From the NCBI RefSeq assembly GCF_014084125.1, contig NZ_CP048405.1, positions 248,001-312,000 of the forward strand: a stretch of 64,000 bases of DNA, written 5' to 3'. Both the position numbers and the translations under genes were made by a program. The notes below the pieces were generated by a model. It was given only the letters and a program-made list of their open reading frames with translations. It was not told the DNA's origin and ran no database searches. Shown here in pieces: positions 50,201 through 63,785 of the stretch (within the stretch, counting starts at the first letter, position 1; each line of letters starts with the position of its first letter). This DNA is from Streptacidiphilus sp. PB12-B1b. GTDB taxonomy: Bacteria; Actinomycetota; Actinomycetes; Streptomycetales; Streptomycetaceae.

Positions 50201-50482
50201 GCCTGCGACGGTGAACTGGCCCTGGCCGAGCAGGTCTTCCAGCAGTGCCTGAAGGCGGCCGCAGCTCGCGACTCCACCCGCTATGTCGCGCGTGCCCACG
50301 AGGGGCTGGCCCACGTCGCGGCTCTGCGTGATAAACCTGCCCAGGCCGTGGAGCACTGGGAAGCCGCGTTGTCGACCCACCCGGGCGGCCTCGTCGACGC
50401 CACGGGAGCCGCGCGCCACCTTGCCGCACCGCACGACCGCGCTGCGACCTGCTGGCGGTGCGTTGCGGTGGGTTCCAGCTGA
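47297..50482 (+). CDS. SARP-family regulator with NB-ARC and TPR domains (AfsR type)
   Basis: 1061 residues. An OmpR-like winged helix (IKVLGPLVLSVGGRQATPRG to RRTLMPAVG, about 38-120) and a bacterial transcriptional activation domain (about 125-270) make the SARP part. The NTPase follows with P-loop GMGGVGKTSLA (about 346-356) and RRVLILLDNAADPTQLRSLLPG. TPR repeats fill residues about 740-1040. Such proteins activate antibiotic genes. I keep the ATG at 47297; a GTG at 47405, nearer the winged helix, is possible. It is divergent from the SDP-like operon and converges on the biosynthetic operon's end. Confidence 0.93.
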   Translation: MHVARTGSGYGSVASSSGKPREDTAFVVPPGQDDDAVPSIKVLGPLVLSVGGRQATPRGARERKLLALLALNANSIVATERIVDALWESPPHSARQQIHNVVGALRRTLMPAVGVELVTDSSGYQLNVPTEAMDALQFRSTVEEAANAEQQGRLEDATWLLDEALGLWRGNALGGLDGWVLTNAATQLDAQRLAAVERLAELRLRMGKAGLALEGLAGMMAEHPLREPLRALLMTALYQCGRQSEAMAVFEEGRRLLAEELGLDPGPQLREAHQQILLGETQEPAKPSASEPRAERPPEQSPGQGADSRSFLPRDIPEFTGREEELRRLRTRPLESNAPAISVIDGMGGVGKTSLAVHMAHLLAAYYPDGQYFVDLAGFSQQAEPMSPLQALNLLLRFDGMAPELIAPDLEARSAQWRSCLVGRRVLILLDNAADPTQLRSLLPGSAGSLVLISSRRRMAELEGAASLSLDVMTEADAIALFCRVAGPERVAGEPDEVRSAVELCGYLPLAIQIAAARLRERSSWRVSFLVGQLRDNESRARILAAGDRDVMNIVAWSYHHLTKRQQRLLGLLSLHTGPDFDSYATAALASLPLHQVEADLDKLFELNLLKQHAADRYHLHDIVRDCARRLLDATVDRAEAAEAVGRLADYYLWSADSWCRLLTKTSLPSVPKIDHRPEATRSASDVKHAMRLLEAEFRCIVATLRLTADLGQHHRVWQTMSTLRPYLSALNHPADSGPMFELGRLAARADGSLVGEAACLAGLAEAQLAHGTPAEAEKLSERALALSRQAGDRTGEISQLNSLGRIHWTTHDLDRAGTRYEEALRVAHELGDGQLQAGLTNNLAIISRELGRNEEALRYFLEARSLGETSLSPGAEASILNNTGLVSVVLGDWEGAAAVYQQSLELSRAAGTEQSEVLALVGLCIVRRGMGLSSEAMMYGRAALEIARRTSMYEGEAQALNALGDIHACDGELALAEQVFQQCLKAAAARDSTRYVARAHEGLAHVAALRDKPAQAVEHWEAALSTHPGGLVDATGAARHLAAPHDRAATCWRCVAVGSS

Positions 50483-50486
50483 CTGC

Positions 50487-51257
50487 TCACTGCCTGGTGC
50501 CCAGGAGGTCCGCGTCACGCCGGAACAGGGAGGCGAGCAGGAACGGCGGACCGTAGTACGGGGAGGCCGGCGGCTGTTGCCGCATGGACCGGATCTCCAC
50601 CTCGGTGAGATCGGAGAAGATCCACCGCAACTCCTGAGGGGTGTAGGCCAGCCCGCCGTAGAGTTTGCCGTCTCGGTACAGGTGGGCATCGGGCACCGGC
50701 GAACCGGAACCAGGCGCCCACGCGGCGAAGGCGGCGAGCACCAGGTGCCCGCCGACGGCCAGTACCCGCTCCAGCAAGCGCAGGTAGCTGATGCGGCGGT
50801 GCGGCGGCAGATGGTGGAAGAACCCGGAGTCGACTACCAGATCGTACGGGCCGGACAGCTCGTTCCGGGTGAGCTTGAACGCGTCTCCACAGTGGAGGTC
50901 CACTTCCACGCCCGCTTCTTCGGCACGGTCGCGGGTCCAGGCGATCGCGTCGGGGGACAGGTCGACGGCATCCACCTGGAATCCGCGGGACGCCAGGAAG
51001 ACGGCATTCCGGCCGGGCCCGCAGCCCAGATCCAGGACACGGCCGGAAGCGAGTCGCCCGGACTCCACGTACTCCGCCAGATGCTCGTCGGGCTTGTTGA
51101 CGAAGAAGGGCACCGGACGGTCCCGGTCGGCGTAGTACTGGTCCCAGAACTCGGCTCCGCCCGCCGGAGTCCAGCGGTCGGCCGTGACGGGGAACAGCCC
51201 GTCCAAGAGGTCAAGGACGTCATCCACGGTGCGGATGTTTCGTGAGACAGGACGCAT
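50487..51257 (-). CDS. Class I SAM-dependent methyltransferase, last gene of the biosynthetic operon
   Basis: 256 residues. Motif I is VLDLGCGPGRNAVFLASRG, the acidic residue follows in VDAVDLSP, and motif IV is YDLVVDSGFFHHLPP. The N-terminal FWDQYYADRDRPVPFFVNKPDE is typical of small-molecule and thiopurine-type methyltransferases. I start at the ATG at 51257 (a longer frame runs to 51323). It follows the HydE-like radical SAM gene by 137 bases and ends four bases from the SARP stop. Confidence 0.85.
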   Translation of the reverse strand: MRPVSRNIRTVDDVLDLLDGLFPVTADRWTPAGGAEFWDQYYADRDRPVPFFVNKPDEHLAEYVESGRLASGRVLDLGCGPGRNAVFLASRGFQVDAVDLSPDAIAWTRDRAEEAGVEVDLHCGDAFKLTRNELSGPYDLVVDSGFFHHLPPHRRISYLRLLERVLAVGGHLVLAAFAAWAPGSGSPVPDAHLYRDGKLYGGLAYTPQELRWIFSDLTEVEIRSMRQQPPASPYYGPPFLLASLFRRDADLLGTRQ

Positions 51258-51394
51258 GTCAGACCAATCACGGGATGTGCATCGGGGAGCGCGGGTGATG
51301 ACTCTCAGGATGCGGCGGCACAACAGGGCAGGCTCGATGCGCGGTCGTTTCCGGTCCGCACATCCGGGGAGTCAGATCTGCGGGCCCGGTGCGG

Positions 51395-52381
51395 TCACAC
51401 CGTCGTGGGCTCGAGGAACACCGAACCGCGCGGCTTGAGCCCCGTTCGGGCGATCATCCGGCTGGCGTAGTCGCGCTTCACCACGAAGCGGTCACGCCCG
51501 TAGATGAGGTAGCGGTCACGCTGCTCGTCCGGTGTGAAATTCACGGTGATGACGTTCGCCCCGGCCATGAGCCCGCGGTACTGGCCCTCGCCGGCCCGCT
51601 TCGACAGTGCGCTCACCGCCGGTACCAGCCACTCAGGTCCCAGGAGCCGCGAAACCGCGATGGCATTGAGCGCCAATTCCACATCGCCGGCCGGATGGTT
51701 CGCCAACGGCGTGTTCGGTGCCGGGATGAACGGTGCCACGCTGCACATGTGGACACCGAGGTCGCGGGCGAACAGGAGGTCCCTCGCCACACTGGCCACA
51801 TCCTGACCGGGCAGCCCGACGATGGATCCGGTCCCGACGCGATAGCCGAGATCGAGCAGGTCCTGGAGGCACTTCAGGCGGGACTCCAGAGTTTCGTGCC
51901 GCATCTGCTCGTTCATCCGCGGATCACTCGTCTCGAACTTGAGAATGTAGCTCGTCGCGCCCTGCTCCCGGAGGTACTCGTACTCGCTGCGGCGTTTGTT
52001 GCCCAGGTTCAACAGGATCTCGACGTTGTCGTCATACAGCCTGCGGATGCCCGGAATCGCCTCACCCACGACCCGCGTGGTCTGCGGTATCTCACCTGCC
52101 TGGAAGAACACCACGTTGATGCCGCTCGCTTTGACGGAGGCGGCGGTATCGATCAGCAGCTCCGACTGGAGCCGGAAGTCGCTGTTCTCCCGTGTGTTGT
52201 CCCGCCGCATGGGGCAGAACTCGCAGTTGACCCGACACTGGTTGGTGATCTCGGTGACGCCGCGGACCACCACCTCGCTCCCGAAGGCCTCCAGGCGCTT
52301 CGCCCTGGCCTGCGCGAAGAGCTCCTCCTGGTCCTTTCCACGAAGTTGCAGAAGTTCTGTGACATCCTGCTCGTCAAGCAT
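51395..52381 (-). CDS. Radical SAM enzyme of the BioB/HydE/PylB group
   Basis: 328 residues. The [4Fe-4S] motif is CRVNCEFC (C49, C53, C56). The order VFFQAGEIPQTT, LKFETSDPRMNEQMR, GSIVGLPGQ, VAPFIPAPNTPL and GANVITVNFTP matches HydE/PylB-like proteins. PylB rearranges lysine to methylornithine, and HydE matures hydrogenase. Here there are no hydrogenase or pyrrolysine genes, so a carbon-skeleton change on an amino acid or similar substrate of the cluster is a reasonable inference. GGAAAGGTGG precedes the ATG. Confidence 0.85.
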   Translation of the reverse strand: MLDEQDVTELLQLRGKDQEELFAQARAKRLEAFGSEVVVRGVTEITNQCRVNCEFCPMRRDNTRENSDFRLQSELLIDTAASVKASGINVVFFQAGEIPQTTRVVGEAIPGIRRLYDDNVEILLNLGNKRRSEYEYLREQGATSYILKFETSDPRMNEQMRHETLESRLKCLQDLLDLGYRVGTGSIVGLPGQDVASVARDLLFARDLGVHMCSVAPFIPAPNTPLANHPAGDVELALNAIAVSRLLGPEWLVPAVSALSKRAGEGQYRGLMAGANVITVNFTPDEQRDRYLIYGRDRFVVKRDYASRMIARTGLKPRGSVFLEPTTV

Positions 52382-52458
52382 TTCCCTACCACCTTTCCTG
52401 GTCGAGCACGACGGTCTTCTTGACCGCGGGTTCCGGTAGGCTCCTGGGCCGCACCGGG

Positions 52459-53763
52459 TCATGAGTCGGCGCCTGCCGGCCGGCCGCAGGCAACACGGTT
52501 CTGTATCCACCCCAGCGGAATCGTGCTGACCGCGAATACCAGGCCGAGCACGTACCAGCCCAGTGGGCCCCCGCCGCCGGCGAACCATCCGAAGAGCGCC
52601 GGCGCTGAAAGACTCGCCACATCGAATCCCATTCCGAAGATTCCCTGGGATTTTCCGTACGACTGTTGTGGGACGAGCCCGTACATCAGGATCGTCGAGC
52701 CGATCGAGTAGAGGATGTCGCCGCAGACCAGAGAGACTGCGAGGAACATCAGCGCGGCGAGCGCGGCCGTGACACCAACGCGGCGGGACAGTTCCGCCGC
52801 GACCGGAAACGTAAGCGCGGAGATCGCGAAAAGCAATGCCCCGATCCGGGCGGACCGGGCCGCCCGGCGATCTGTCGTGACTCGACGCGCCACCGGGACC
52901 TGTAGCAGCACCACACCGATCGTGTTCACGACGAGCGTGGCGGAGATGATCCACATGGGCACGTGCATGCGTGCGCCCACCCAGAGCGGCAGAGCGATCG
53001 TCAGCATCGGCTCTGCCAGGCAGAAGAGCCAATTGAGCAGCACCAGCGCCACGACGTGCCTGTCCCGCAGGATCCCGGACGTGGATGCGGTCCGTTCTTG
53101 CTCCGCGGCCGACCTGCCTCCGACCGCACCGGGATCCACGAATCCCCGCGCCTGCCAGAACATGCCTCCGGTGGCGGAGAGCATCACAGCCTCCGCCACG
53201 AACGACGCGTCGAAGGCCGCCCGCGACCCCGCGGCCAGTACGACGGCACCGAGGCCCAGCCCCACCACCATCGCGACGTTGGCCATCGACCGGACAACCG
53301 CCCGGAAACGCAGCCGGCGGTCTCGGCCGACCGCGCTCCCGACAAGCGCCCCCTGTACGGCGGCGCTCCCCCGTGCACACATCACCAGGACGCTGAGCAG
53401 CCCGAGAGCGACCAGCGCCGGTGAGACGGTGAGGCACAGCGTCACTGCCGCCATCGTCCACATGAGGCAGGCGTAGAGGACGTATCCGCTGAGCCGGTCC
53501 GCGAGCCCACCGATCGCCGGGCCCGCGAGAAGTCCCAGGACCGCCGCGACACTTGCCCCTGCTCCGTACACGGCCGGGCTCAGATGCTCCTGCCGAAGCA
53601 TGTACACGGCCAGGGACGAGAACGAAAGACCCGTAGCCACGTACAGCGTGACCATGGCCGCGGCAAGTCGCCTCTCGACCGGGCCCTGAACCTCCTCGCG
53701 CCAGGAGGCGGCCCGGAAGATCCGGGCGAGGAGCCGCGGGCGCCGCTCCGCTTCCACTGTCAT
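52459..53763 (-). CDS. MFS exporter of the biosynthetic operon
   Basis: 434 residues with about 12 membrane helices in two halves, joined by a charged loop (GGRSAAEQERTASTSGILRDR). Loop 2-3 contains GGLADRLSGYVLY, and helix 11 is near GMGFDVASLSAPALFGWF. It resembles the MFS exporters that accompany small-peptide and metabolite clusters. The ATG at 53763 starts MTVEAERRPR. It lies between an oxygenase and a radical SAM gene, so it probably exports the product and may give self-resistance. Confidence 0.85.
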   Translation of the reverse strand: MTVEAERRPRLLARIFRAASWREEVQGPVERRLAAAMVTLYVATGLSFSSLAVYMLRQEHLSPAVYGAGASVAAVLGLLAGPAIGGLADRLSGYVLYACLMWTMAAVTLCLTVSPALVALGLLSVLVMCARGSAAVQGALVGSAVGRDRRLRFRAVVRSMANVAMVVGLGLGAVVLAAGSRAAFDASFVAEAVMLSATGGMFWQARGFVDPGAVGGRSAAEQERTASTSGILRDRHVVALVLLNWLFCLAEPMLTIALPLWVGARMHVPMWIISATLVVNTIGVVLLQVPVARRVTTDRRAARSARIGALLFAISALTFPVAAELSRRVGVTAALAALMFLAVSLVCGDILYSIGSTILMYGLVPQQSYGKSQGIFGMGFDVASLSAPALFGWFAGGGGPLGWYVLGLVFAVSTIPLGWIQNRVACGRPAGADS

Positions 53764-53829
53764 TACTGCACTGCCCTCTCCCCTACCAAGTGACCCGATC
53801 GGCCGGTCCGCGCGCCCGCGGACGGGCAC

Positions 53830-54579
53830 TCAGTCCCCTGGCCCGGACGTCCCGCTATGCACACCTGGCTGCGCGGGAGCGCCTTCCAGAGAGGTCAGGA
53901 ACCTGCGGAGTCCGTCCCGCGCTTCTGCTCCGGCGCCGTCGGACCTCCTCGTCACGAAGCCGGTGAGGGTGCACCGCTCCCGAACCGCGGTCGGATCCAC
54001 CCGGTTGACCTGGTGCGGGGTTCCCGCGCTGAGCAGGACCAGCCGGTTGGGCCTGGGAAGGACGGCGACCGGGCTCAGTGCGGACCGCTGGACCGCTGCC
54101 CCGACCTCCGCCGTGTCGGTGCTTTCGCCCGGTTCTCCCACGCCCTCGTCCAGGATCAGCAGCTCACCGCCCCAGGAGGCGCGCCATTCATCGTGCAGGA
54201 ACAGGATGTAGGCGCCCGTTCGTCCGCCGCCCGCGTCACTGTGCCATCCGTAGCGGGATCCCACCGGATATTTCCAGAAAGTGAAGCCCACCCGGTCCCA
54301 GTCGCTGCCGAGGTCCCCGAACAGAGCCGGAGCCGCGGTGATGACATCAAGGACGCGGTCGTACGTATCGGGTCCTCCGGCCGTGCGCCGATCGGATGTC
54401 CCGTTCCGGACGACGGTAGTCCGCGACTTGTACGGCGTACCGTCCTCCGCTTTCTGGATGGGGCCCTGCGCCGGAGCGAATGTGCTGTGGGTCATGACCC
54501 GGCGGATTTCCGCCAGCGCGGGGCCGTCGAGAAAGTCGTCGAGGACGGTATAGCGCCGTCCGCGCTGCGTCACCTGCAT
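53830..54579 (-). CDS. Fe(II)/2-oxoglutarate oxygenase, prolyl-4-hydroxylase type (paralogue A)
   Basis: 249 residues. Iron ligands H113 and D115 are in WHSDAGGG, the distal H189 is in GTPHQVNRVD, and an Arg near 200-202 is placed for 2-oxoglutarate. FTFWKYPVGSRYGWHSD and WGGELLILDE are typical of the P4H group. It is clearly a tandem duplicate of the next gene upstream, with the same opening MQVTxRGxRxxxxDDFLD. Each probably hydroxylates a different position or step. Confidence 0.87.
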   Translation of the reverse strand: MQVTQRGRRYTVLDDFLDGPALAEIRRVMTHSTFAPAQGPIQKAEDGTPYKSRTTVVRNGTSDRRTAGGPDTYDRVLDVITAAPALFGDLGSDWDRVGFTFWKYPVGSRYGWHSDAGGGRTGAYILFLHDEWRASWGGELLILDEGVGEPGESTDTAEVGAAVQRSALSPVAVLPRPNRLVLLSAGTPHQVNRVDPTAVRERCTLTGFVTRRSDGAGAEARDGLRRFLTSLEGAPAQPGVHSGTSGPGD

Positions 54580-54676
54580 GATGTACTCCGTTTCCTGCTC
54601 TCGGACGCCTGCTCGATGATTCCGGTTCGGCCGGGGTCCGCCTTGGCGTTATGGACCGCCGGGCTTCCAGCTCGGC

Positions 54677-55399
54677 CTACGAGGCTTTCCTGGCCGACTC
54701 GCCCATCAATCGCAGGAGTGTTTCCCGGGCTTCCGTGCCGGTCGTCTCCGTGGTCTTCTTCGATATGAAGCCGGTCAGCGTGCACCTGGGTGCCTCCGCG
54801 GTGGAATCCACCCGGTTGATCTGGTGCGTCGTTCCGGCTTTCACGAGCACCAGCCGATTGGGTCTGGGAAGGATCGCGACGGGGCTGCCCGTGGACTGTC
54901 TGACCTGCTTCTCCATTTGCGCGATAAAACTCCCGGTGCCATCGGCCGACGCCGCAGGTTCCTCGTTCAGTACCATCAGCTCGCCGCCCCACGAGGCATT
55001 CCAGGTGTCATGCAGGAAAACGATGAACTCGCCCCTGCGGCCACCCCCGGCATCGTTGTGCCAGCTCAGCCTGCTTCCGGCGGGGTACCGCCAGAACGTG
55101 AAGCCGGCCTGGTCCCAGCCGTCCCCGCGGGTACCGAAGATCCCTGGCTCGGCCGCCACCGCCCTGAGGATCTTCTCGTACGCCTTCGGCCGGCCCGCGC
55201 TGTCCTCCTGGCCGAGGGCGTCACCCTTGAGATAGGTGCCTCGAGACCGGAAGGCCCTGCCGTCGGTTTCCGGGTGGATGACGCTCTGCACCTCCGAGAA
55301 GGTGGCGCGGGCCATCAGTGTGCGCATCTCCGTCAGCATCGCCTCGTCGAGAAAGTCATCGATGATGACGAACCGGTCTCCCCGGTGCGTGACCTGCAT
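54677..55399 (-). CDS. Fe(II)/2-oxoglutarate oxygenase, prolyl-4-hydroxylase type (paralogue B)
   Basis: 240 residues. Ligands are H114 and D116 in WHNDAGGG, and H192 in TTHQINRVD; R205 follows in PRCTLTGF. The middle region 145-172 differs most from paralogue A, which is where the substrate lid lies in P4H enzymes, so a changed substrate or site is plausible. It is 87 bases from the carrier-protein gene. Confidence 0.87.
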   Translation of the reverse strand: MQVTHRGDRFVIIDDFLDEAMLTEMRTLMARATFSEVQSVIHPETDGRAFRSRGTYLKGDALGQEDSAGRPKAYEKILRAVAAEPGIFGTRGDGWDQAGFTFWRYPAGSRLSWHNDAGGGRRGEFIVFLHDTWNASWGGELMVLNEEPAASADGTGSFIAQMEKQVRQSTGSPVAILPRPNRLVLVKAGTTHQINRVDSTAEAPRCTLTGFISKKTTETTGTEARETLLRLMGESARKAS

Positions 55400-55486
55400 G
55401 ATCTCGGTGTTCCCCTCCGTTGTGATCGCACGAATTGCGCGTGCCGTGCTTGCGCGTGTGCACAGAGCCGCGGTCCTGGCCGGTTC

Positions 55487-55837
55487 TCATTCCTGATCGA
55501 GCGGTTCTGCCGGGTTTGTCCCGGGAGTCGGGCACGACGCAAGCAGGAGCGCTTCGGCCCAGCTGGCCACGGTGCGGCGCCCGGCGTCGACCAGGACCTC
55601 TTCCGGCAGCTCGAGGCCGGTTTCCTCGCCGACCCGCAGCGCCAGCCTGATCCAGTCCAACGACCCCAGCCCGAGCTCCACCAGATCCCGGTTCCGGATA
55701 CTGCCTTCGGTCCTGACCTCATCGAGAGGGAATGGCGCCGTGCCGAGTTCGCCCAGCATCTCCACTAGCAGTCCGGCGATCAGGGCGGCGAAGTCCGTGC
55801 CGGTATCCGCCCGACCGGCGGTCCCGTTATCGCCCAT
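55487..55837 (-). CDS. Acyl/peptidyl carrier protein
   Basis: 116 residues. The pantetheine attachment motif is LGLGSLDWIRLALRV with S59; the Asp of the usual DSL is Gly here. Helix 1 is LIAGLLVEMLGELG and helix 3 LPEEVLVDAGRRTVASWAEALLL. It overlaps the ligase gene by 11 bases, so the ligase very likely loads it. It is a stand-alone carrier, not part of a PKS or NRPS. Confidence 0.85.
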   Translation of the reverse strand: MGDNGTAGRADTGTDFAALIAGLLVEMLGELGTAPFPLDEVRTEGSIRNRDLVELGLGSLDWIRLALRVGEETGLELPEEVLVDAGRRTVASWAEALLLASCPTPGTNPAEPLDQE

Positions 55838-57137
55838 GGCGGGACTCCTTTCTTACGAGGGTGGTCAGTGCATCCCGGTCGAGTTTTCCCAGAATATTGC
55901 GCGGAAATCCACTGAACTGTAGGACCAGCGGTCTTGGAATCGAATCGGGCAGCTGCGAGAAGTAACTCTCCAGCGTGCGTTCGGCAATGGTGGACCGGGT
56001 CTCCACCACGGCATAGAGGTCCTCGATTTCTGGAGTCCCATCGCGTCCCAGAACCAGGATCTGAACGTCGGTGGCGCCGGATATCTCGCGCAACCCGCGG
56101 GTGAGCGGCTCCGGGTCGACGAACCGGCTGTTGAGCCGGACAGCCGAGCGGACGCGTTCGATGTGGTGGTAGATGCCGTCCGCGTCGCACTCGACGATGT
56201 CGCCGGTATGCCAGACGTCACTAGGGGTGCGGCCGAGGGTTCCCTCCACCGGTGCCGACATCTCCAGGACGAGTTCACCCCGTCCGCGTCCCACAGGCCT
56301 CCGGACCTGGATACCGGCGATCGGCCGGCCGATGCCCCGGGGCCCGAGAAACATTCCGCCGGTCTCGGTGGATCCGTAACCGCGGTGCAGTGGCCGGCGA
56401 AAGCGCTCCTGGAACGCCGCGTCCAGCGCGTCCGGCACGCCACCGGCCCCCACCAGCGCGCAACGCACGCTCTGGTCCCCGCTGCGCTTCACATCCAGCA
56501 GGAGCCTGGCGAGCGCCGGTGTCAGCACCACCACCGAGACCGCCCCCGAGTCCATCAGATTGGCCAGTGTCCGCAGCCTGCTGGTGGGCGTCGTGTCGAT
56601 GTCGCAGCCTGTCAGGAGGGCGGCCATGACCAGGCCCCAGCCGTAGGAGTGGGTGATCGGCACCGGTACGGCGACCCGATCGGCCGGCACCAACTCCAGG
56701 TAGTCCCGGTAACCGGCGGCTTCGACGCGCACGCCGGCAATCCCGCGACGGGCCGTCTTGGGCTTTCCGGTGCTGCCTGAGGTCGGCATCAGCACGGCCG
56801 TCCGGCCCAGCCCGGGGACGACGGTGCGGTTCGTGGCCGGCGTGACGACCAGGTCCTGGTGCAGCCGACACACCCGCTGCAGGTCTTCAGGCAGATCCTG
56901 GATGCCTGGCGCGATCAGGGGAACGGCGTCGAGCAGCCAAACCGCCAGCATCGCTGTGATGGTGTCGGCCGCACTCAGATCGATCAGCAGAACGACATCG
57001 CCAGGTTGGACGCTCGCGTTCATGAGCCCTGCCCTGGCGAGCTGGATACGGCCCCGGCTGTCGATGATCGGCCGCCCGTCGACCCGGGAGCCGCGGGAGA
57101 TGATCAGTGACGCCAGGGAACGGCGGTCTTCGCTCAC
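55827..57137 (-). CDS. ANL-superfamily acyl/aminoacyl-adenylating ligase
   Basis: 436 residues, shorter than the usual 500 or more, with a trimmed N-terminal part. All core motifs are present: A3 MPTSGSTGKPKTA (118-129), A5 GYGSTETGG (253-261), A7 WHTGDIVECD with D313, A8 ERVRSAVRLN (327-336) and A10 RNILGKLDRD with the catalytic K418. It activates a carboxylic acid as AMP ester and passes it to a thiol, here presumably the carrier protein. The substrate pocket sequence is not one I can read. Confidence 0.87.
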   Translation of the reverse strand: MSEDRRSLASLIISRGSRVDGRPIIDSRGRIQLARAGLMNASVQPGDVVLLIDLSAADTITAMLAVWLLDAVPLIAPGIQDLPEDLQRVCRLHQDLVVTPATNRTVVPGLGRTAVLMPTSGSTGKPKTARRGIAGVRVEAAGYRDYLELVPADRVAVPVPITHSYGWGLVMAALLTGCDIDTTPTSRLRTLANLMDSGAVSVVVLTPALARLLLDVKRSGDQSVRCALVGAGGVPDALDAAFQERFRRPLHRGYGSTETGGMFLGPRGIGRPIAGIQVRRPVGRGRGELVLEMSAPVEGTLGRTPSDVWHTGDIVECDADGIYHHIERVRSAVRLNSRFVDPEPLTRGLREISGATDVQILVLGRDGTPEIEDLYAVVETRSTIAERTLESYFSQLPDSIPRPLVLQFSGFPRNILGKLDRDALTTLVRKESRHGR

Positions 57138-58384
57138 CGCGGTTCCCCCCTGTCCAACGGCCCGTCTCCGCCGGCTGACAGCACGGTTACCTGCTCATCG
57201 AGCAGCTCGGGATCACCGGTTTCGCGGTACGACTGCAACAGCCTGCTCGTTTCCGGGCGGAACTCGACGGTGTGCAGGACTCCGTTGACCTCCACGCTGA
57301 CGTCTCCCGGGGCGAACAGGTCACTGCGCAGGTGGAGGCGCACCTGCTGAGCCCCGCTCACCCGGATCCGGATCGCGTCCCCGGACATCCGCTCGGCGTG
57401 GACCTCCGCGATCGACTGGGGCACGAGCCGGTCCAGCTCGACCCAGTAGGCCCGGGCGTGACCGTGGTCCAGGGCACGGTGCCGGATCTCGGTCACCGCG
57501 CCTGACCGGTGCCGACCGGCCAGCCAGCCTGCCAGCTCGCGAAAACGCGGAGACTCCCCACGCTCCAGGTCGAGAGTCCCCAGAGCGTGCCGGCCGCCTG
57601 CGACTTCGCTGTACCGCAGCTCCCCGTGCCCGAGCTCCCGCAGACCTGCCACGGACTCCCGGTCGAATCTGGGCAGGATCTGCGTGTCCTCGGCACCGTG
57701 CACGACGAACAGGGGAAGCGGCAGCAGGTTCCGCAGCAGCGCGCGCTTTCTGAGATCCGTCCCGAACGCCTCCCACATCGACAGGGCCCCGTTGATCGGC
57801 ACCGCGGCGCAGAAGCGCCCCCAGAACCGCATCGCCAGGTTCCAGGTGGCCAGCGCCCCCATCGAAACGCCAACAACCATGCAACGGTCCGGATGGACGT
57901 TCAGCGTCGTCCGTGCCCAGTACAGCGCGGCAAGCGGAAAGTCGTCGCCGTCGAGATCCCAGCACGGCGCGTCGAACCGGTTGCCGAACAACCCGGCCAT
58001 GTCGAGGCGGTTGGACCGCTTCTCCACGGGCCGCGCCGTGGGGCAGAGCAGGGCGACGTTCAACAGCCGTGCGAGCGCCTGGAACCGCGGCAGCAGACTC
58101 GGGCCGCTGCCGCCGACGCCGTGCAGGAGTACCAGGGCGCCGAGCTGGCTGCTGTCCGTGCCGCTGGGGACGTACACCGCCATGTCGGTGGTCCTGCCAG
58201 TGACGTCCGTCAGGACCACGGTGCGGGTACCGGGCTCGGCCGTCGGGGACCCCTCACGGCTGCACAGCCGGCGTCTCAGCTCGGCCACGTCCAGGTTGGA
58301 CCGACGGAACCGCCGCATCAGCTCGGCCGGGTCACCGTCGGCGCAGAGCGTGCGCAGCTCGTGCGGGCGTAGGTCGGTCAGCAC
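57134..58384 (-). CDS. Alpha/beta hydrolase (PHB-depolymerase/feruloyl-esterase-like)
   Basis: 416 residues. Nucleophile S174 is in VGVSMGAL, the Asp in HGAEDTQILPRF (233), the His in GGRHALGTL (266), and the oxyanion segment is LLHGVGGSG (86-94). After residue 290 a beta-rich extra domain (VRLHLRSDLFAPGDVSVEVNG) is present. There is no signal peptide, so it acts inside the cell. It may release a product from the carrier protein or trim an ester. It overlaps both neighbours. Confidence 0.8.
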   Translation of the reverse strand: MLTDLRPHELRTLCADGDPAELMRRFRRSNLDVAELRRRLCSREGSPTAEPGTRTVVLTDVTGRTTDMAVYVPSGTDSSQLGALVLLHGVGGSGPSLLPRFQALARLLNVALLCPTARPVEKRSNRLDMAGLFGNRFDAPCWDLDGDDFPLAALYWARTTLNVHPDRCMVVGVSMGALATWNLAMRFWGRFCAAVPINGALSMWEAFGTDLRKRALLRNLLPLPLFVVHGAEDTQILPRFDRESVAGLRELGHGELRYSEVAGGRHALGTLDLERGESPRFRELAGWLAGRHRSGAVTEIRHRALDHGHARAYWVELDRLVPQSIAEVHAERMSGDAIRIRVSGAQQVRLHLRSDLFAPGDVSVEVNGVLHTVEFRPETSRLLQSYRETGDPELLDEQVTVLSAGGDGPLDRGEPR

Positions 58385-59277
58385 GGCGTCACCCCGGTAG
58401 GACGGGGCGGGAGGCTCGCCGGGAAAGGCCCTGCGAAGTGCCGGGAACCCAGACAGATGGGTACCCGGTTCCTTCGGCGCACCTTGGCCTGCGACAGTTG
58501 GAGTGCGCCCAGGATGTCAGCGGCCAGGACCGGGAACTCCAGCGTGTCGGCGCCGTTCGCCCGTGCGGCCGGCCGGAGCAGGTCGACCAACGCCCTGAGC
58601 CCGTTGCCGTCTGTCCCGAGACTCACGCTCGACACCAGTCGGCTGCCGTCCAGCACCCAGTGGACACGCGTTGCTGACTCGTCCGCGGGAGACCCTTCGC
58701 CGTCGGACCGGTCGGCCCGGCCGAACAGATCCACGGTCGGTGCCGCCGAGCGCTCGTCGCGTGGCAGCATGATCTCTCCCCGGAACCTCGGCCGATCGGT
58801 ACTGGTGGTCGGCTGGGACGTCTTGTCCTCCGCGTGGTCGTCCGACGGCAAGGGGAGACCGACGCGGTAGATCAGCGGCCGCCGAGGGCTCATGCCCAGG
58901 ACTTCGGCGATGCCCGACTCCTGCATGCCTGGTTCGAACCACGCGGCGATCCCGAACAGGCCTTCCTGCTTGGCCGTGTCCCGCAGTGCGAACGCCAGTC
59001 GCAGCGCGGCAGTCGAGCCGCGCATGTCCTCGCTGACGTACACACCCTTGAGAAAGAGATAGGGGCCCCACCGCATGCTCCGGTGAACCGCGTACAGCCG
59101 CCCGTCCGAGTCGTTCAGCCCCACCCAGCGGAAGTCGTCCGTGGCGGCCAGCTCCTGCCGCAGGCGTGCCGACGTGAGGCCGAATCCGCCGGACAGCCGG
59201 TACACGTGCTCGGCATCCGCCGGTCCCAACTGGCGCACCACGCCATCAACACCGGGCACGGTTCTCCGTTCCACCAT
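58378..59277 (-). CDS. GNAT-like acetyltransferase of the biosynthetic operon
   Basis: 299 residues. An N-terminal GNAT-like domain is seen in GVVRQLGPADAEHVYRLSGGFGL and FLKGVYVSEDMRGSTAALRLAFAL, with DMRGSTAA replacing the usual Q/RxxGxG/A loop. The second half (VHWVLDGSRLVSSVSLGTDGN) may be a second, weaker GNAT-like domain. It overlaps the radical SAM gene by 32 bases and the hydrolase gene by seven. Acylation of the product or intermediate is inferred. Confidence 0.7.
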   Translation of the reverse strand: MVERRTVPGVDGVVRQLGPADAEHVYRLSGGFGLTSARLRQELAATDDFRWVGLNDSDGRLYAVHRSMRWGPYLFLKGVYVSEDMRGSTAALRLAFALRDTAKQEGLFGIAAWFEPGMQESGIAEVLGMSPRRPLIYRVGLPLPSDDHAEDKTSQPTTSTDRPRFRGEIMLPRDERSAAPTVDLFGRADRSDGEGSPADESATRVHWVLDGSRLVSSVSLGTDGNGLRALVDLLRPAARANGADTLEFPVLAADILGALQLSQAKVRRRNRVPICLGSRHFAGPFPASLPPRPTGVTPC

Positions 59278-60655
59278 TCCGTACTTCCGCTATGGGCAGC
59301 ATGCGACGCGTGAGCGCGACGAATTCCCGGCCCTCCTGGGGCGCCGGGGAGCCGCCGGGGGTGAGGGGGATCTTCAGCATCTTCCGACTGGAGGTCCGGC
59401 CGGCCATGAGATTGAGCATCCGGCCCGTGGTGAGGAAGCGGCTGTCCAGGTCACCGATGACCCACGAGAACAGGTCCGGGTCCAGTGGATGGAATGTCGG
59501 GTCCAGTATCTCGGCGTTCTCCAGGCCCAGTTGGCGGGCCAGCTCGGTCTCGGGCAGGACGCGGTAGCCGACATTCAGCGTCAGTTCCTCCGAGTCGAGG
59601 TTGTCGTTGATCCACTGGGCCGTGGCCCGGACGCTCTCCCGGGTCTCACCCGGGCCACCGAGCACCACACTGACCTTGAACTTGATGCCACGGGGCCGGC
59701 ATCGTTCGATGAACCTCTCCACATGCCGGGTGTCGAAGCTCTTGCCGAGCGCCCGCATCACCCGGTCGTCCAGGCTGTCGGGTGAAATGATGACCGGGCC
59801 GACGTTGCTGACGGAGAGGAGGTCAGCGAACTCGTCATCGAACGGCTTGGGCGTGAAGTATGCGGACCAGGTCAGCCCTGACAGGTCTGCGGCAGTCACC
59901 GCGCGGACCACGTTCTTGGCGAAACTCAGTTCGCTGTTGAAGATACCGTCGGTGAAGAAGACATCCCGGATCCCGCTCCCGTAGGCGGTCCGCAGTTCTT
60001 CGACTATCGCCCCCGTCGGCTTGTGATCGCCGCCGTTGTCACCACTGATGTAGGCGTAGGGGCAGTAGACGCATCCCTGGTAGCAGGTCTTGCGCTTGGT
60101 CTCCACGCCGATCGAGCCGCCCCGGGAGGCATAGGCCGACAGCAGCCGCTCGGGGTGGTCCAGGCTGTTGGCGATGAATCCCGGATAGCGATCGCCGGAC
60201 AGGTTCTGCCCGAACCCGAGGTACTTCCGGGGATCCGCGACGATCTCGAGCATGGACTGCTCGCCGGGCCCCACCACCCCGACGTCGAATCCGAGTCGGC
60301 TGATCAGCTCCGGCCCGAACAGGCTGTAGCCGGGGCCGCCGCCCACCAGCAGCGGACGACGGTGGCCCAGCGCCTCGCGGATCCGGGCGAGAAAGGTCTC
60401 GTAGTGTGTCACGTGCCCGTCGCAGGACAGGTCCACCGGATCGATGTTCCTGATGGTGAAGCCGATGACGTCCCATGGCTCTGCGGCCCATGACAGGTCC
60501 GTGGAGGCCGAGGGGTCCTCGATGAAATCGATCAGCCGTGTCCTGTGGTTCTCCCGCTCCAGCGCGTCCTGTATGCACCTGATCCCGATGGGGAAGATGG
60601 GATCGTTTCCGGGCATGGGGAGGCTGGCGAGATTGACGAGCAAAACGGCGGTCAT
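59246..60655 (-). CDS. Cobalamin-binding-type radical SAM enzyme
   Basis: 469 residues. A Rossmann-like N-terminal domain of the B12-binding type (LLVNLASLPMPGNDPIFPIG, GFTIRNIDPVD, LLVGGGPGYSLFGPELI) precedes the radical SAM domain with CYQGCVYC (C191, C195, C198). The base-on-type DxHxxG motif is absent, as in many class B radical SAM methylases. These enzymes methylate unactivated carbons or make C-C bonds. First gene of the 11-gene operon; GAAGGAAAG precedes the ATG. Confidence 0.87.
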   Translation of the reverse strand: MTAVLLVNLASLPMPGNDPIFPIGIRCIQDALERENHRTRLIDFIEDPSASTDLSWAAEPWDVIGFTIRNIDPVDLSCDGHVTHYETFLARIREALGHRRPLLVGGGPGYSLFGPELISRLGFDVGVVGPGEQSMLEIVADPRKYLGFGQNLSGDRYPGFIANSLDHPERLLSAYASRGGSIGVETKRKTCYQGCVYCPYAYISGDNGGDHKPTGAIVEELRTAYGSGIRDVFFTDGIFNSELSFAKNVVRAVTAADLSGLTWSAYFTPKPFDDEFADLLSVSNVGPVIISPDSLDDRVMRALGKSFDTRHVERFIERCRPRGIKFKVSVVLGGPGETRESVRATAQWINDNLDSEELTLNVGYRVLPETELARQLGLENAEILDPTFHPLDPDLFSWVIGDLDSRFLTTGRMLNLMAGRTSSRKMLKIPLTPGGSPAPQEGREFVALTRRMLPIAEVRNGGTENRARC

Positions 60656-61154
60656 GGCTTTCCTTCAGTGGAATCGCTGATCGGCGGATCCGGTTGGCGT
60701 CATACGGAACAGTGAATCCATGGGGCGGCAACCGTGGATGGCAGTCGGACCGCCGTAGCGGCACGAATCCTCGTCAAGGGCTGCTGCGACGCCTGGCTGG
60801 ACAGCGGGTTCCAGACCCGGAGCGTGTTCCAGGAGCCGTGATCGGGCTCTGGACGGATCTGTAACCCTTGCCCTGTTGTGCGGAGGCGGCTCGCCGCCGC
60901 CCTGACTGCAGGAATTCGTAGCCGGGATGAGCTTGTGAACGTGCTGTGGCCTGATGCCGACCCCTTGCCGTTCCTGAGCGTTGCGCCAGCCGACTCGGGG
61001 CCGGCTATCAGGCCACAGTGCCCGGCGACTCCTTCAGGGATCAGGAGATCACGCGGACGTACTGCTGATGACGCAGAATCCTACTGAGACTCGCGGACTG
61101 CCGCAGGACGGAATATCCGTCCGGTCGGCAGGCCGACGAATGCCCGGATGCTGT
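60656..61154. other. Intergenic region between the leader-peptide gene and the main operon
   Basis: 499 bases. It contains a decayed SARP-like fragment (60878-61068, plus strand) and a pair of small hairpins just after the peptide gene (61106-61137, minus strand: GGACGG-AATAT-CCGTCC and GTCGG-CAGG-CCGAC). The hairpins could slow or partly end transcription, so the peptide may be made in excess over the enzymes. The operon promoter should be at 60680-60790; TTGACG at 60770-60775 on the minus strand is the only -35-like word. Confidence 0.45.
60878..61068 (+). pseudogene. Decayed fragment of a SARP-type winged-helix regulator
   Basis: One frame reads RRLAAALTAGIRSRDELVNVLWPDADP, the usual N-terminal winged-helix text of SARP proteins. 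A second frame further on reads LGAGYQATVPGDSFRDQEIT, matching the wing and start of the activation domain. The middle is deleted and the frame is lost, and a stop follows. Confidence 0.45.
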
Positions 61155-61448
61155 TTAGAGCGGGTCGCAGGACGGCGCGGCGACACGGTACAGGAACTCC
61201 GCGTCAACGAGGTTGAAGAGCGCCTCGCACGCACCGTCGAAACGCTTGGCATCGGCCAGCATGAGGCTGTCCATGCCCTCCTTGTCGAACGACAGGCCAG
61301 CCGCCTCCATGGTTCCACGCGGGTCGACCGAGAGGTTCTTGGCGAACTCCTCGTCGTAGGTGAGCCGGCCGACGATCGCGTCGATCGTCATGGCCGCCCG
61401 CATTGCGGACTCAGCCTGGGTCCGCGTGAGCTCAAGGATTTGAGCCAT
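61155..61448 (-). CDS. 97-residue peptide with Nif11/NHLP-like leader (candidate RiPP precursor or scaffold)
   Basis: The protein opens with MAQILELTRTQAESAMRAAM, then IVGRLTYDEEFAKNLSVDPR and GTMEAAGLSFDKEG, the layout of Nif11/NHLP-type leaders (helical, with a DPxxxLxxxGL block). The tail is AEFLYRVAAPSCDPL with one Cys near the end and a second at residue 74. The Shine-Dalgarno AAAGGAGGTG and a TTGACA promoter are the strongest in the cluster, as expected for a substrate peptide. No GG cleavage site is visible. It could equally be a small helper protein. Confidence 0.7.
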   Translation of the reverse strand: MAQILELTRTQAESAMRAAMTIDAIVGRLTYDEEFAKNLSVDPRGTMEAAGLSFDKEGMDSLMLADAKRFDGACEALFNLVDAEFLYRVAAPSCDPL

Positions 61449-61486
61449 GTCCGAACACCTCCTTTGGTTTGAGTAATTCCGAGGAG

Positions 61487-61516
61487 AAGCTAATGAGCGG
61501 ACGGGAAGGCTGTCAA
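61487..61516 (-). promoter_or_regulatory. Strong promoter of the 97-residue peptide gene
   Basis: On the minus strand TTGACA (61511-61516) and TAGCTT (61487-61492) are 18 bases apart, about 40 bases before the ATG. The -35 is a perfect consensus, unusual in this genome. Confidence 0.65.
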
Positions 61517-61890
61517 CGGCGGTCGCGTCGGAAAGAGGGAATATGCACAAGCAGCGGTGCTTCATGTATGGGGCAGCGCGGGAACAGGTCGGGAACGCCT
61601 GCAAGCAGGATCCGAGGTATTCCGCAACTCGAAATGGAACCCGCACCCCGGGCCCGGCCGTCCTGGTCACTTAGGCCACCGCGCGGACGCACTGACCGTC
61701 CGTCGGAGTTCTCCGCGACACGACCTGGGACGGCGAGGCAGTTCTCGGTAGCAACCAGTGAGCCATGCGGTAGGTGGGTGCGGAACCTTTGCCCGCAGGA
61801 GCATGAGGCACCCCTGTCGCCCAGCCGGCGCTCATCCGGTTCACGGAGCTCGGCCACGCTCGGATGCCGCGGATGGAAAGGGCAGGTCAG
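61517..61890. other. Divergent intergenic region
   Basis: 374 bases between the peptide promoter and the ParB-domain regulator. No supported gene; an AT-richer stretch at 61530-61640 is the likely control region for both sides. No StrR-type GTTCGACTG box was found. Confidence 0.45.
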
Positions 61891-62946
61891 ATGTTCGAGG
61901 AAGCTCAGAGGCCGATCCACACGGTGCCGGTCGGATCCCTGCTCCCGGCGGACTCGCCCCGCGTGGAGGGGCTGAACGAGGATCACGTGAAGATTCTGGC
62001 CGACAGCGGGACCGAGTTCGAACCGATCCTCGTGCACCGGGAGGAGGGACGCGTGGTCGACGGGATGCACCGGCTCCAGGCCACGATCCTGCGCGGTGAG
62101 CACGACATCGCGGTGCGATACGTCGACGGGTCATCGGCCGATCTGTTCATCCGCTCGGTCCAGGCCAACGTCAACCACGGCCTGCCGCTGACTCTCAGGG
62201 ACCGCAAAACCGCGGTCGTACGCATCCTGACCACCCATCCGCACTGGTCGGACCGCGCCATCGCCACGGCGGCCGGGGTGTCGCCGAAGACCGTCGGTGC
62301 GGCCCGAGGGAGGCTTTCGACTGAGGAATCTCCTCACTCGAATCCGTCGGTCGCGCGCCTGGGCAAGGACGGTCGGGTGCGTCCGGTCGACATACGGGAA
62401 CGGCGCGAGAAGGCACTCGGCCTGCTGGCGGAGCAGCCCAAGGCGTCCCTGCGCGAAGTGTCCGAGGCGGCCGGTGTCTCCATCAGCACCGCGCACCGAC
62501 TGCGGCAGGAGCTGCGGTCCCGTCCCACCGCGCCCACCCCTGGGGGGCAGCGACCGGCCCCGGTGAACATCCGCGTGCGGGAGGACTCCGCGTGGCCGTC
62601 CGGGCTCGTCATCTCCGGATCCCGAAGGGAGCCCGGACTGACCACGGTTCCGCACCCGGACGACTCCTCGTCGGGGGAGGTCGCCCGTACCCGCATCAAG
62701 GCCCTGGACACCCTCGCCAACGACCCATCGATCCGCTTCACGGACAGTGGTCGCACCCTGCTGCGCTGGCTCAACAGCCAGGCCCGGGGGCTCGCGGCCG
62801 CCGAGCAACTGTTCGCGCAAGTGCCGCCGCACTGCGTCGGCATGCTCGCTGAAGTAGTGGGTCACTATGCCAGGCACTGGGAGCAGCTTGCTGTCGAGAT
62901 GCAGCAGAGCGAACGCGGGGACGAATCCTGGCGAGAAGCCCGGTGA
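61891..62946 (+). CDS. ParB-domain transcriptional regulator (StrR/NovG-like)
   Basis: 351 residues from the ATG at 61891. The ParB N-terminal domain reads VPVGSLLPADSPR, FEPILVHREEGRVVDGMHRLQATILRG and VRYVDGSSADLFIRSVQANVNHG. Two helix-turn-helix units follow: DRAIATAAGVSPKTVGAARG (about 135-155) and LREVSEAAGVSISTAHRLR (about 190-210). StrR, NovG and similar pathway-specific activators share this architecture. Together with the SARP it makes two candidate activators for the cluster. An ATG at 61864 is less likely, having no ribosome site. Confidence 0.83.
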   Translation: MFEEAQRPIHTVPVGSLLPADSPRVEGLNEDHVKILADSGTEFEPILVHREEGRVVDGMHRLQATILRGEHDIAVRYVDGSSADLFIRSVQANVNHGLPLTLRDRKTAVVRILTTHPHWSDRAIATAAGVSPKTVGAARGRLSTEESPHSNPSVARLGKDGRVRPVDIRERREKALGLLAEQPKASLREVSEAAGVSISTAHRLRQELRSRPTAPTPGGQRPAPVNIRVREDSAWPSGLVISGSRREPGLTTVPHPDDSSSGEVARTRIKALDTLANDPSIRFTDSGRTLLRWLNSQARGLAAAEQLFAQVPPHCVGMLAEVVGHYARHWEQLAVEMQQSERGDESWREAR

Positions 62947-63074
62947 CACCTCCGGTCTTCGGAGGGATTGCTCGCTGATATCCGTATTCAGAGGGCCATC
63001 GGACGATCCCTCGCCGGATTGCCTTCGCCCTCTGCCGACTCCGGGCGTGTCACACACGAGCGGGATCAGGGTTG

Positions 63075-63785
63075 ATGGCGCATGCTCTCTCCTACACAAT
63101 CGCTCTCGTGACTGATGACCCCATAGGCACCGGACCTGGTGCGATAACGAATGACGGATGCGCGGTCGAGTTCTACGGATTGCTGCCGACAGTCGGCGAG
63201 CCGGAGATTGTGCATGCAGCCGTGCCGCCCGGCGCTTCGATTCTCGAACTCGGCTGCGGCACAGGTCGAATTCTGCGGCCACTCGCGGCCTGGGGGCACC
63301 CGGTGACCGGAGTCGACCACTCCTCGGATATGCTCGCCAAAAGTCCGGACCTGGAGACGGTGTGCTCACCGATCCAGTCGTTGCGACTGAACCGCTCGTT
63401 CGACGTGGTGCTCCTGGCCAGCCAGATGATCAATTCTGATCCGGTCACCCGTCAGGATTTCCTCGCCACCGTTCGGCACCATCTGCGCGACGGTGGAATC
63501 GCTGTCTTCCAGCAGAGTCCACCGACCTGGTTCGAGAAACTCGAGCATGCGGAGCCGGTTGTGGAGACGGCGGGTATACGGCGCACCATACGCCTAGCCC
63601 GCTGGGAACCTCCGCGCATGCGCGCCGAGGTCGAATACCAGGTCGGCGAGAACACCTGGTCCCATGCCTGGAGCAGCTACATGCTCACCGACGAGGCGCT
63701 GGTCGGCGATCTCGCCGCGGCAGGCCTGCGGTTCGGTGAGTGGCTCAGGGACAACCGGGCGTGGTTCACGGCTCATCCCGCCTGA
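63075..63785 (+). CDS. Class I SAM-dependent methyltransferase
   Basis: 236 residues. Motif I is ILELGCGTGRILRPLAAWG, motif II VTGVDHSSDML, motif IV FDVVLLASQMIN and post-motif HLRDGGIAVFQQSP. The start of the ORF (ATG at 63075; a GTG at 63108 is possible) is uncertain. It is 128 bases after the ParB-type regulator, same strand. Membership in the cluster is likely but the substrate is unknown. Confidence 0.83.
   Translation: MAHALSYTIALVTDDPIGTGPGAITNDGCAVEFYGLLPTVGEPEIVHAAVPPGASILELGCGTGRILRPLAAWGHPVTGVDHSSDMLAKSPDLETVCSPIQSLRLNRSFDVVLLASQMINSDPVTRQDFLATVRHHLRDGGIAVFQQSPPTWFEKLEHAEPVVETAGIRRTIRLARWEPPRMRAEVEYQVGENTWSHAWSSYMLTDEALVGDLAAAGLRFGEWLRDNRAWFTAHPA

What the first reader, a model, noticed from the sequence alone, without database searches (positions are those of the whole stretch)
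50487..63785. Unrecognised biosynthetic cluster combining two radical SAM enzymes, two P4H-type oxygenases, a lone ligase/carrier pair and a leader-like peptide
Seen: an 11-gene minus-strand run with overlaps or short gaps (60655 to 50487), a 97-residue peptide upstream with its own strong promoter, and two regulators. Known: ANL plus carrier protein activates an acid as a thioester; B12-type radical SAM enzymes alkylate unactivated carbon; P4H-type enzymes hydroxylate; PylB/HydE enzymes rearrange. Inference: an amino acid is loaded on S59 of the carrier, rearranged, methylated and hydroxylated, then released by the hydrolase. Alternatively the peptide is the substrate. There is no PKS, NRPS or lanthipeptide enzyme, so standard class rules may miss it.
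Basis: partly seen in the sequence, partly recalled or inferred. Interest (0 to 1): 0.88.

Follow-up and report, generated by a model that had tools for sequence, protein, structure and literature searches.

The report
Ribosomal gene cluster for cyclothialidine-like antibiotics
The cluster most likely makes a tiny ribosomally encoded peptide that is hydroxylated and bridged by an aromatic acid, giving a cyclothialidine-like inhibitor of bacterial DNA gyrase; spare gyrase genes next door fit self-protection, and this would explain how a long-known gyrase antibiotic is made.

Summary
The gene run is real, with ten genes, not eleven. Relatives of its B12-type radical SAM gene were recovered in 20 other actinobacterial loci; in all 21 loci it stands near a small peptide gene. 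The peptide looks like the substrate: Ser-Cys is invariant (22 of 22 copies) near the C-terminus and Pro precedes it in 21 of 22. The one Asn copy lies in the only untruncated locus without a P4H oxygenase gene, and no P4H relative was found in its genome. Pro-Ser-Cys is the middle of cyclothialidine (Ser-[3-hydroxyPro]-Ser-Cys-Ala, an aromatic acid bridging Ser O and Cys S; structure recalled), a GyrB ATPase inhibitor. I then asked whether producers guard GyrB: a second complete gyrB and a second parE-type gene lie 0.1 and 2.8 kb beyond the window edge, and three more of the 21 loci lie beside gyrB, two of them inserted between recF and dciA-gyrB at the replication origin. Best reading: a cyclothialidine-type RiPP cluster in which ligase, carrier, radical SAM and acyltransferase enzymes build and staple the aromatic acid. 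The product and every enzymatic step are inferred. No account of cyclothialidine biosynthesis turned up in the open-licence library.

The parts
61155..61448 (-). precursor peptide, 97 aa, C-terminus ...VAAPSCDPL; predicted leader plus tiny Pro-Ser-Cys core
   Evidence: present in 21/21 loci; Ser-Cys invariant in 22/22 copies; Os1348/NHLP model NF038399 37.0 bits, cut-off 40
59246..60655 (-). B12-binding radical SAM enzyme (CYQGCVYC); proposed aromatic C-methyltransferase
   Evidence: Pfam B12-binding and Radical_SAM; nearest solved structure TsrM tryptophan-C2-methyltransferase, profile E 2.5e-30
58378..59277 (-). GNAT-fold acyltransferase-like protein, tandem domains
   Evidence: AlphaFold2 model, mean pLDDT 84.5; tandem GNAT structures are among the top Foldseek matches
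57134..58384 (-). alpha/beta-hydrolase with invariant Ser174, Asp233, His266; proposed NosK-like aroyl transferase or releasing enzyme
55827..57137 (-). ANL (AMP-binding) ligase, proposed aromatic acid activation
   Evidence: PF00501 93.6 bits; family alignment
55487..55837 (-). carrier protein, Ppant site Ser59
   Evidence: PF00550 28.1 bits, motif position
54677..55399 (-). P4H-type 2OG-Fe(II) oxygenase b, proposed prolyl hydroxylase
   Evidence: PF13640; invariant H114, D116, H192, R205; absent where the core Pro is absent
53830..54579 (-). P4H-type oxygenase a, second copy; proposed to act on the second Pro of PSCDPL
   Evidence: a second intact P4H was seen only in the three loci whose peptide ends PSCDPL
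52459..53829 (-). MFS exporter
   Evidence: PF07690
51395..52381 (-). HydE/PylB/BioB-family radical SAM enzyme (CX3CX2C); proposed thioether former
   Evidence: HydE structures E 5.5e-72 by profile; below the HydE and PylB cut-offs
50487..51257 (-). class I SAM methyltransferase
   Evidence: PF13649; relatives in 5 of the other 20 loci (L005, L006, L015, L039, L080)
61864..62946 (+). ParB-like/HTH regulator
   Evidence: HTH families; relatives beside several clusters
63072..63785 (+). SAM methyltransferase MT2, between the cluster and the second gyrB
   Evidence: PF13649; 83% relative in L005, near a gyrB end
47297..50482 (+). AfsR/SARP-type regulator, possible cluster regulator
   Evidence: BTAD, NB-ARC, TPR; SARP-like hits near 5 other loci

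Best explanation
A RiPP cluster for a cyclothialidine-type DNA gyrase B inhibitor. The 97-aa peptide has an NHLP/Os1348-like leader and a minimal core around Pro-Ser-Cys. The ANL ligase loads an aromatic (resorcylic-type) acid on the carrier. The B12 radical SAM enzyme C-methylates the ring. The alpha/beta-hydrolase or the GNAT protein transfers the aroyl group to the core Ser hydroxyl. The HydE-like radical SAM enzyme joins a ring methyl to the Cys sulfur, closing the lactone/thioether ring. P4H enzymes hydroxylate core proline(s). Peptidases trim leader and tail, MFS exports, and extra GyrB/ParE protect the host. Shown: gene set, conservation, Pro/P4H association, gyrB/parE adjacency. Inferred: every enzymatic step, the product, and the resistance role.
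For: Precursor beside the set in 21/21 loci. Ser-Cys 22/22, Pro 21/22. The sole Asn core belongs to the only untruncated locus without P4H (1 of 20), and its genome gave no P4H match, while the 15 other cluster genomes searched each did. The three loci with two intact P4H have PSCDPL. Cores ending PSCA (3 loci) match the recalled C-terminal Ala of cyclothialidine; Ser-Hyp-Ser-Cys-Ala plus a dimethyl-dihydroxybenzoyl bridge computes to C26H35N5O12S, the recalled formula. The window genome has a second complete gyrB (85% to its other gyrB) and a second parE-type gene just past the window. gyrB is also adjacent in L005, L039 and L013; that label needs at least 2 changes on the tree. The B12-rSAM's nearest solved relative is an aromatic C-methyltransferase. 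The ANL/carrier/rSAM/hydrolase logic is established for nosiheptide (PMC5585349).
Against: No product is known. The cyclothialidine structure is recalled; no held text gave it. No locus found has exactly SPSCA, and the window core is AAPSCDPL. No gene for making the aromatic acid was identified in the cluster. The Pro/P4H association rests on one case (1 in 20 by chance if the two rare states are independent); L007, L012, L037 and L038 have further tail prolines but one P4H. gyrB was found next to only 4 of 21 loci, and in L013 and L039 it is the only full-length gyrB detected, so position rather than resistance may explain those two. Roles of GNAT and hydrolase are not distinguished; the Asp/Asn-hydroxylase-type gene (15 of 20 loci) has no assigned step.
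Confidence: 0.75

Rival explanations
1. A RiPP cluster acting on Pro-Ser-Cys, but with a different product: the carrier-bound acid is aliphatic or an amino acid, and the two radical SAM enzymes make another Cys/Ser modification; gyrB neighbours are incidental.
For: Substrate of the ANL is unknown; its specific NCBIfam relatives are diverse and far below cut-off. No aromatic-acid gene seen. gyrB next to only 4 of 21 loci.
Against: Second copies of both gyrB and a parE-type gene beside the cluster in the window genome; core Pro-Ser-Cys with a prolyl hydroxylase and an acid-activating pair matches cyclothialidine part by part.
Confidence: 0.17
2. One reading: an amino acid is loaded on the carrier, rearranged by the PylB-like enzyme, methylated, hydroxylated and released; the peptide is unrelated.
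For: ANL, carrier, hydrolase and a PylB/HydE-family enzyme are present.
Against: The peptide gene was found with the set in 21 of 21 loci, with an invariant Ser-Cys; P4H presence follows the core Pro; PylB score 106.1 vs cut-off 348.2.
Confidence: 0.04
3. The peptide is a modified peptide cofactor or signal with a housekeeping role rather than an antibiotic.
For: The core is tiny and highly conserved; two loci sit at the replication origin.
Against: Sporadic distribution (radical SAM gene in 1 of 396 phylum genomes, the window's own, and 3 of 14 in the genus); exporter genes and SARP/ParB-type regulators; gyrB/parE copies.
Confidence: 0.04

Closest known systems
Cyclothialidine (Streptomyces filipinensis NR0484), GyrB ATPase inhibitor (target and producer: PMC11878372, one passage read; structure recalled)
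   Same: Pro-Ser-Cys core with a prolyl-hydroxylase-type gene and the acid-activating machinery expected for the aroyl bridge; gyrB/parE copies beside the cluster
   Different: Exact Ser-Pro-Ser-Cys-Ala not found; window core AAPSCDPL would give a longer acidic congener; product not observed; producer's cluster not located
Nosiheptide indole side-ring module NosI/NosJ/NosN/NosK (PMC5585349, abstract and passages read)
   Same: In role: adenylating enzyme, stand-alone carrier, radical SAM methyltransferase and alpha/beta-hydrolase fold enzyme handle an aromatic acid for a ribosomal peptide
   Different: No thiopeptide enzymes among the ten cluster genes; NHLP-like leader; HydE- and TsrM-like radical SAM enzymes; sequence homology to Nos proteins not tested
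Os1348 family NHLP-clan precursors, Pseudomonas sp. Os17 (PMC7726476, abstract read)
   Same: Small precursor with NHLP-like leader; NF038399 37.0 bits
   Different: Below cut-off 40; the Pseudomonas cluster OS3 is four genes (Os1348-Os1351) upstream of transporter genes, and its abstract describes no such gene set
HydE / PylB / BioB radical SAM family
   Same: Profile match over about 300 residues, CX3CX2C
   Different: Below equivalog cut-offs; no hydrogenase or pyrrolysine genes recognised among the cluster genes
TsrM tryptophan C2-methyltransferase
   Same: Nearest solved relative of the B12 radical SAM enzyme
   Different: 99.5 bits vs cut-off 500

Membership tests
RiPP | precursor gene conserved with modifying enzymes | tested here: met
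   21 of 21 loci
RiPP | conserved modifiable core residues | tested here: met
   Ser-Cys 22/22, Pro 21/22
RiPP | mature modified peptide observed | not testable with these tools
   needs mass spectrometry
Cyclothialidine-type compound | Pro-Ser-Cys core with a prolyl hydroxylase | tested here: met
   Pro-Ser-Cys plus P4H gene in 19 of 20 untruncated loci; hydroxylation itself not tested
Cyclothialidine-type compound | exact Ser-Hyp-Ser-Cys-Ala | tested here: not met
   not among 22 precursors; nearest APSCA in L008, L010, L079
Cyclothialidine-type compound | aromatic acid bridging Ser O and Cys S | not testable with these tools
   ANL, carrier and two radical SAM genes present in the 20 untruncated loci
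Cyclothialidine-type compound | GyrB as target (self-resistance copy) | tested here: inconclusive
   extra gyrB and parE-type gene in the window genome; gyrB adjacent in 4 of 21 loci; resistance not assayed
Os1348/NHLP clan (NF038399) | curated score cut-off | tested here: not met
   37.0 vs 40 bits; Pfam Frankia_peptide 29.3 vs 48
HydE | TIGR03956 cut-off | tested here: not met
   220.8 vs 254.6
PylB methylornithine synthase | TIGR03910 cut-off | tested here: not met
   106.1 vs 348.2
Thiopeptide (nosiheptide type) | azole/dehydroalanine/pyridine-forming enzymes | tested here: not met
   none recognised among the ten cluster genes
Nosiheptide side-ring enzymes | sequence homology to NosI/J/K | not tested
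   Nos sequences not fetched

The most novel reading that the evidence does not exclude
A new RiPP class: ribosomal Pro-Ser-Cys-core GyrB inhibitors in which a carrier-bound, radical-methylated aromatic acid is ester-linked to Ser and thioether-linked to Cys by a HydE-family radical SAM enzyme, with the cluster travelling beside its target gene gyrB and, in two genera, inserted into the dnaN-recF-gyrB replication-origin operon.
Probability: 0.6. Interest if true: 0.9.

Novelty: new variant of a known kind. Interest (0 to 1): 0.85.

Why it matters
Cyclothialidine was the starting point of a large synthetic programme (PMC11878372, passage), yet no account of its biosynthesis was found in the held library. 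If right, these antibiotics are gene-encoded, so analogues follow from editing a few core codons, and 22 natural precursors with at least ten different endings after Pro-Ser-Cys are in hand. It would also give a HydE-family enzyme a role in peptide C-S bond formation, and a clear case of an antibiotic cluster linked to its target gene, in two genera at the replication origin.

Tried and rejected
Rejected: PylB-type rearrangement and HydE membership (below cut-offs). Lanthipeptide membership: LxmK and HopA1-type proteins lie next to the L007 (Amycolatopsis) cluster as neighbours only. Plasmid location: tblastn of the radical SAM protein in plasmids gave no match. A gyrase residue comparison was looked at but not used as evidence. 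No sigma-70-type promoter was found. Leads that gave little: paper searches for HydE-like RiPPs (none), for the peptide family name (one graspetide paper), for aminopeptidase/hydroxyproline RiPPs and for gyrase-inhibitor RiPPs with self-resistance; inverted repeats upstream of the operon (one 12-nt pair). The last genome search (4 of 392 genomes, two of them already known loci) did not turn up SPSCA.

Rows dropped: L010 (contig ends in the HydE-like gene) from P4H counts and from alignments A2, A3, A4, A6, A7; L008 HydE (start miscalled by my script) from A4; L009 and L012 ANL from A6; L012 P4H from A7. Loci found later (L031, L037-L039, L079, L080) are not in alignments A1-A7; L031 and L037-L039 are in the tree (19 rows), L079 and L080 are not. 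The P4H genome search covered 16 cluster genomes (4, 12), not the window genome or those of L010, L039, L079 and L080; the gyrB genome searches covered 18, not those of L010, L079 and L080. L040 is the whole contig of L014; L075 and L076 repeat L008 and L010; L003/L032 and L004 repeat L011 and L018. Searches found no gyrB in one Glycomyces genome, which cannot be true biologically, so those counts are lower bounds.
Full report
What is there. The minus-strand run 60655-50487 holds ten genes: B12-binding radical SAM, GNAT-like, alpha/beta-hydrolase, ANL ligase, carrier, two P4H-type oxygenases, MFS, HydE/PylB-like radical SAM and a methyltransferase. The 97-residue peptide gene is 61448-61155, with AAAGGAGG upstream. 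Plus-strand neighbours are a ParB/HTH-type regulator (61864-62946) and a methyltransferase (63072-63785); an AfsR/SARP-type regulator (47297-50482) lies on the other side. The genome is 7.67 Mb in one contig; the window is C1:248001-312000. It appears to be a Streptacidiphilus: the S. melanogenes locus coordinates reappear in a 'same genus' genome (inference).

Conservation. A scan of the genome collection (84,980 species by the tool's description) with the B12 radical SAM protein gave 14 loci in Streptacidiphilus, Amycolatopsis, Streptomyces, Actinomadura, Nocardia, Kitasatospora and Glycomyces. Genome searches added six (L031, L037, L038, L039, L079, L080; found, DNA). With the window that is 21 loci. 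All 21 carry the peptide gene upstream of the radical SAM gene. In the 20 not cut short by a contig end (all but L010), ANL, hydrolase, GNAT-like and HydE-like genes are found (hydrolase and GNAT-like matches are weak in Glycomyces), and a carrier (by motif only in L015, L016, L017 and L080). The radical SAM gene is rare: 1 of 396 genomes across the phylum (the window's own), 3 of 14 in the genus, 5 of 80, 2 of 70 and 2 of 22 in three other genera, 4 of 392 in the genus of L008's genome (each tally includes the genome searched from, and E limits were 1e-60 or 1e-80).

The peptide. The N-terminal part is conserved and resembles the Os1348/NHLP clan (37.0 bits, cut-off 40). The end carries Pro-Ser-Cys followed by 1 to 19 variable residues. 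Ser-Cys is invariant in 22 copies (L017 has two). Pro precedes in 21; the exception is L014, Kitasatospora humi, with Asn. L014 has no P4H in its locus (whole contig = L040) and no match in its genome (completeness not told), whereas the 15 other cluster genomes searched each have one. A second intact P4H occurs in three loci (window, L005, L039), all with two prolines (PSCDPL); their sister L006 has one P4H and PSCDT. Against this: L007, L012, L037 and L038 have further prolines in longer tails but one P4H (in L012 one gene split in two frames). Fifteen of 20 loci also have an Asp/Asn-hydroxylase-type gene whose target I cannot name. L005, L006, L016 and L017 carry an M24 aminopeptidase-P-type gene, which would trim an N-terminal residue before Pro (known activity of that family); no such gene showed in the window part compared.

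Identification. Pro-Ser-Cys with a prolyl hydroxylase and an acid-activating ligase/carrier pair recalls cyclothialidine: Ser, cis-3-hydroxyPro, Ser, Cys, Ala, with 3,5-dihydroxy-2,6-dimethylbenzoic acid ester-linked to the second Ser and thioether-linked to Cys. That structure and formula (C26H35N5O12S) are recalled, not read; the composition computes to this formula. A held review gives the producer and GyrB ATPase as target (PMC11878372, one passage). Three loci (L008, L010, L079) end in PSCA at the very C-terminus, as cyclothialidine ends in Ala; none has Ser before Pro together with Ala after Cys.

Test of a prediction. A producer of a GyrB inhibitor should protect GyrB. A gyrB-family search made after this idea found four gyrB/parE-type genes in the window genome and four matches in the L005 genome; the other 16 of the 18 cluster genomes had two or fewer (a protein search, adds a partial 38% match in the L039 genome). 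The two extra ones lie just past the window: gyrB at window-equivalent 64124-66148 (674 aa, 922.9 bits, cut-off 882.4, 85% identical to the other gyrB) and a parE-type gene at 66797-68905 (parE by similarity to the second B-subunit gene of these genomes, no ParE model reached its cut-off). The L005 contig starts with the last 129 residues of a gyrB, 93% identical to that copy, followed by two methyltransferase genes; a second contig of that genome carries a like end, so which copy it is stays open. In L039 and L013, from different families (L039's by inference), the whole cluster sits between recF and dciA-gyrB in the replication-origin operon. So 4 of 21 loci lie beside gyrB; the tree of 19 radical SAM proteins needs at least two changes for that label. 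Chance of such a gene within 10 kb of a random locus is roughly under 1% (inference from about two genes per ~8 Mb). Caveat: in L013 and L039 no second full-length gyrB was found, so these could be positional.

Likely mechanism. Nosiheptide shows the logic: NosI activates an indolic acid, NosJ carries it, the radical SAM enzyme NosN methylates it on the carrier, and the hydrolase-like NosK releases it and is thought to pass it to the peptide, which was not seen in vitro (PMC5585349, abstract and passages). Here ANL and carrier correspond to NosI/NosJ in role. The B12 radical SAM enzyme's nearest solved relative is the aromatic methyltransferase TsrM, fitting ring C-methylation. The hydrolase keeps Ser, Asp and His at the expected places and models as an alpha/beta-hydrolase. 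The GNAT-like protein models as tandem GNAT domains. Either could form the Ser ester. The HydE-like enzyme (HydE structures E 5.5e-72 by profile; below the HydE cut-off) is the candidate for the CH2-S bond. No gene for the source of the aromatic acid was recognised.

Novelty. Paper searches: 53 open-licence papers name cyclothialidine (40 listed); two also hold 'ribosomally' and, in the passages read, neither treats cyclothialidine as a RiPP. The held text of a 2021 review of RiPP mechanisms does not contain the word. Searches listed nothing closer. Subscription papers and cluster databases are not held, so a published cluster cannot be excluded.

Verdict. Ordinary parts, surprising whole: probably the ribosomal origin of cyclothialidine-type gyrase inhibitors, with the product and chemistry still to be shown.

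Noticed in passing
window 45537-46990 (-): SdpB-family (188.2 bits, cut-off 178.4) and SdpA-family (59.4, cut-off 53.1) genes: an SDP-like antimicrobial peptide system beside the SARP gene; SdpC was not looked for.
   Followed up: no
L013 8158-21383; L039 307-17960: The cluster is inserted between recF and dciA-gyrB of the replication-origin operon in two different families.
   Followed up: partly
L006 19882-20502 (-); L007 18139-18273 (-): A 206-aa stand-alone protein resembling part of the GyrB ATPase domain (31% over 164 aa; no Pfam match) and a remnant of a similar gene; could be a drug-binding decoy.
   Followed up: partly
L007 4764-6733 (-): Class V lanthionine synthetase LxmK (401.8 bits, cut-off 315) and a HopA1-type protein next to the Amycolatopsis cluster.
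   Followed up: no
L014 5818-7293 (+): The P4H-less, Asn-core locus has an additional radical SAM gene, perhaps replacing the hydroxylation.
   Followed up: no
L012 14477-16740 (+): ANL and P4H genes are each split in two frames: decay or sequencing error.
   Followed up: no
L017 8941-9877 (+): Two precursor copies with different ends after PSC (PSCDAF, PSCDIW).
   Followed up: no
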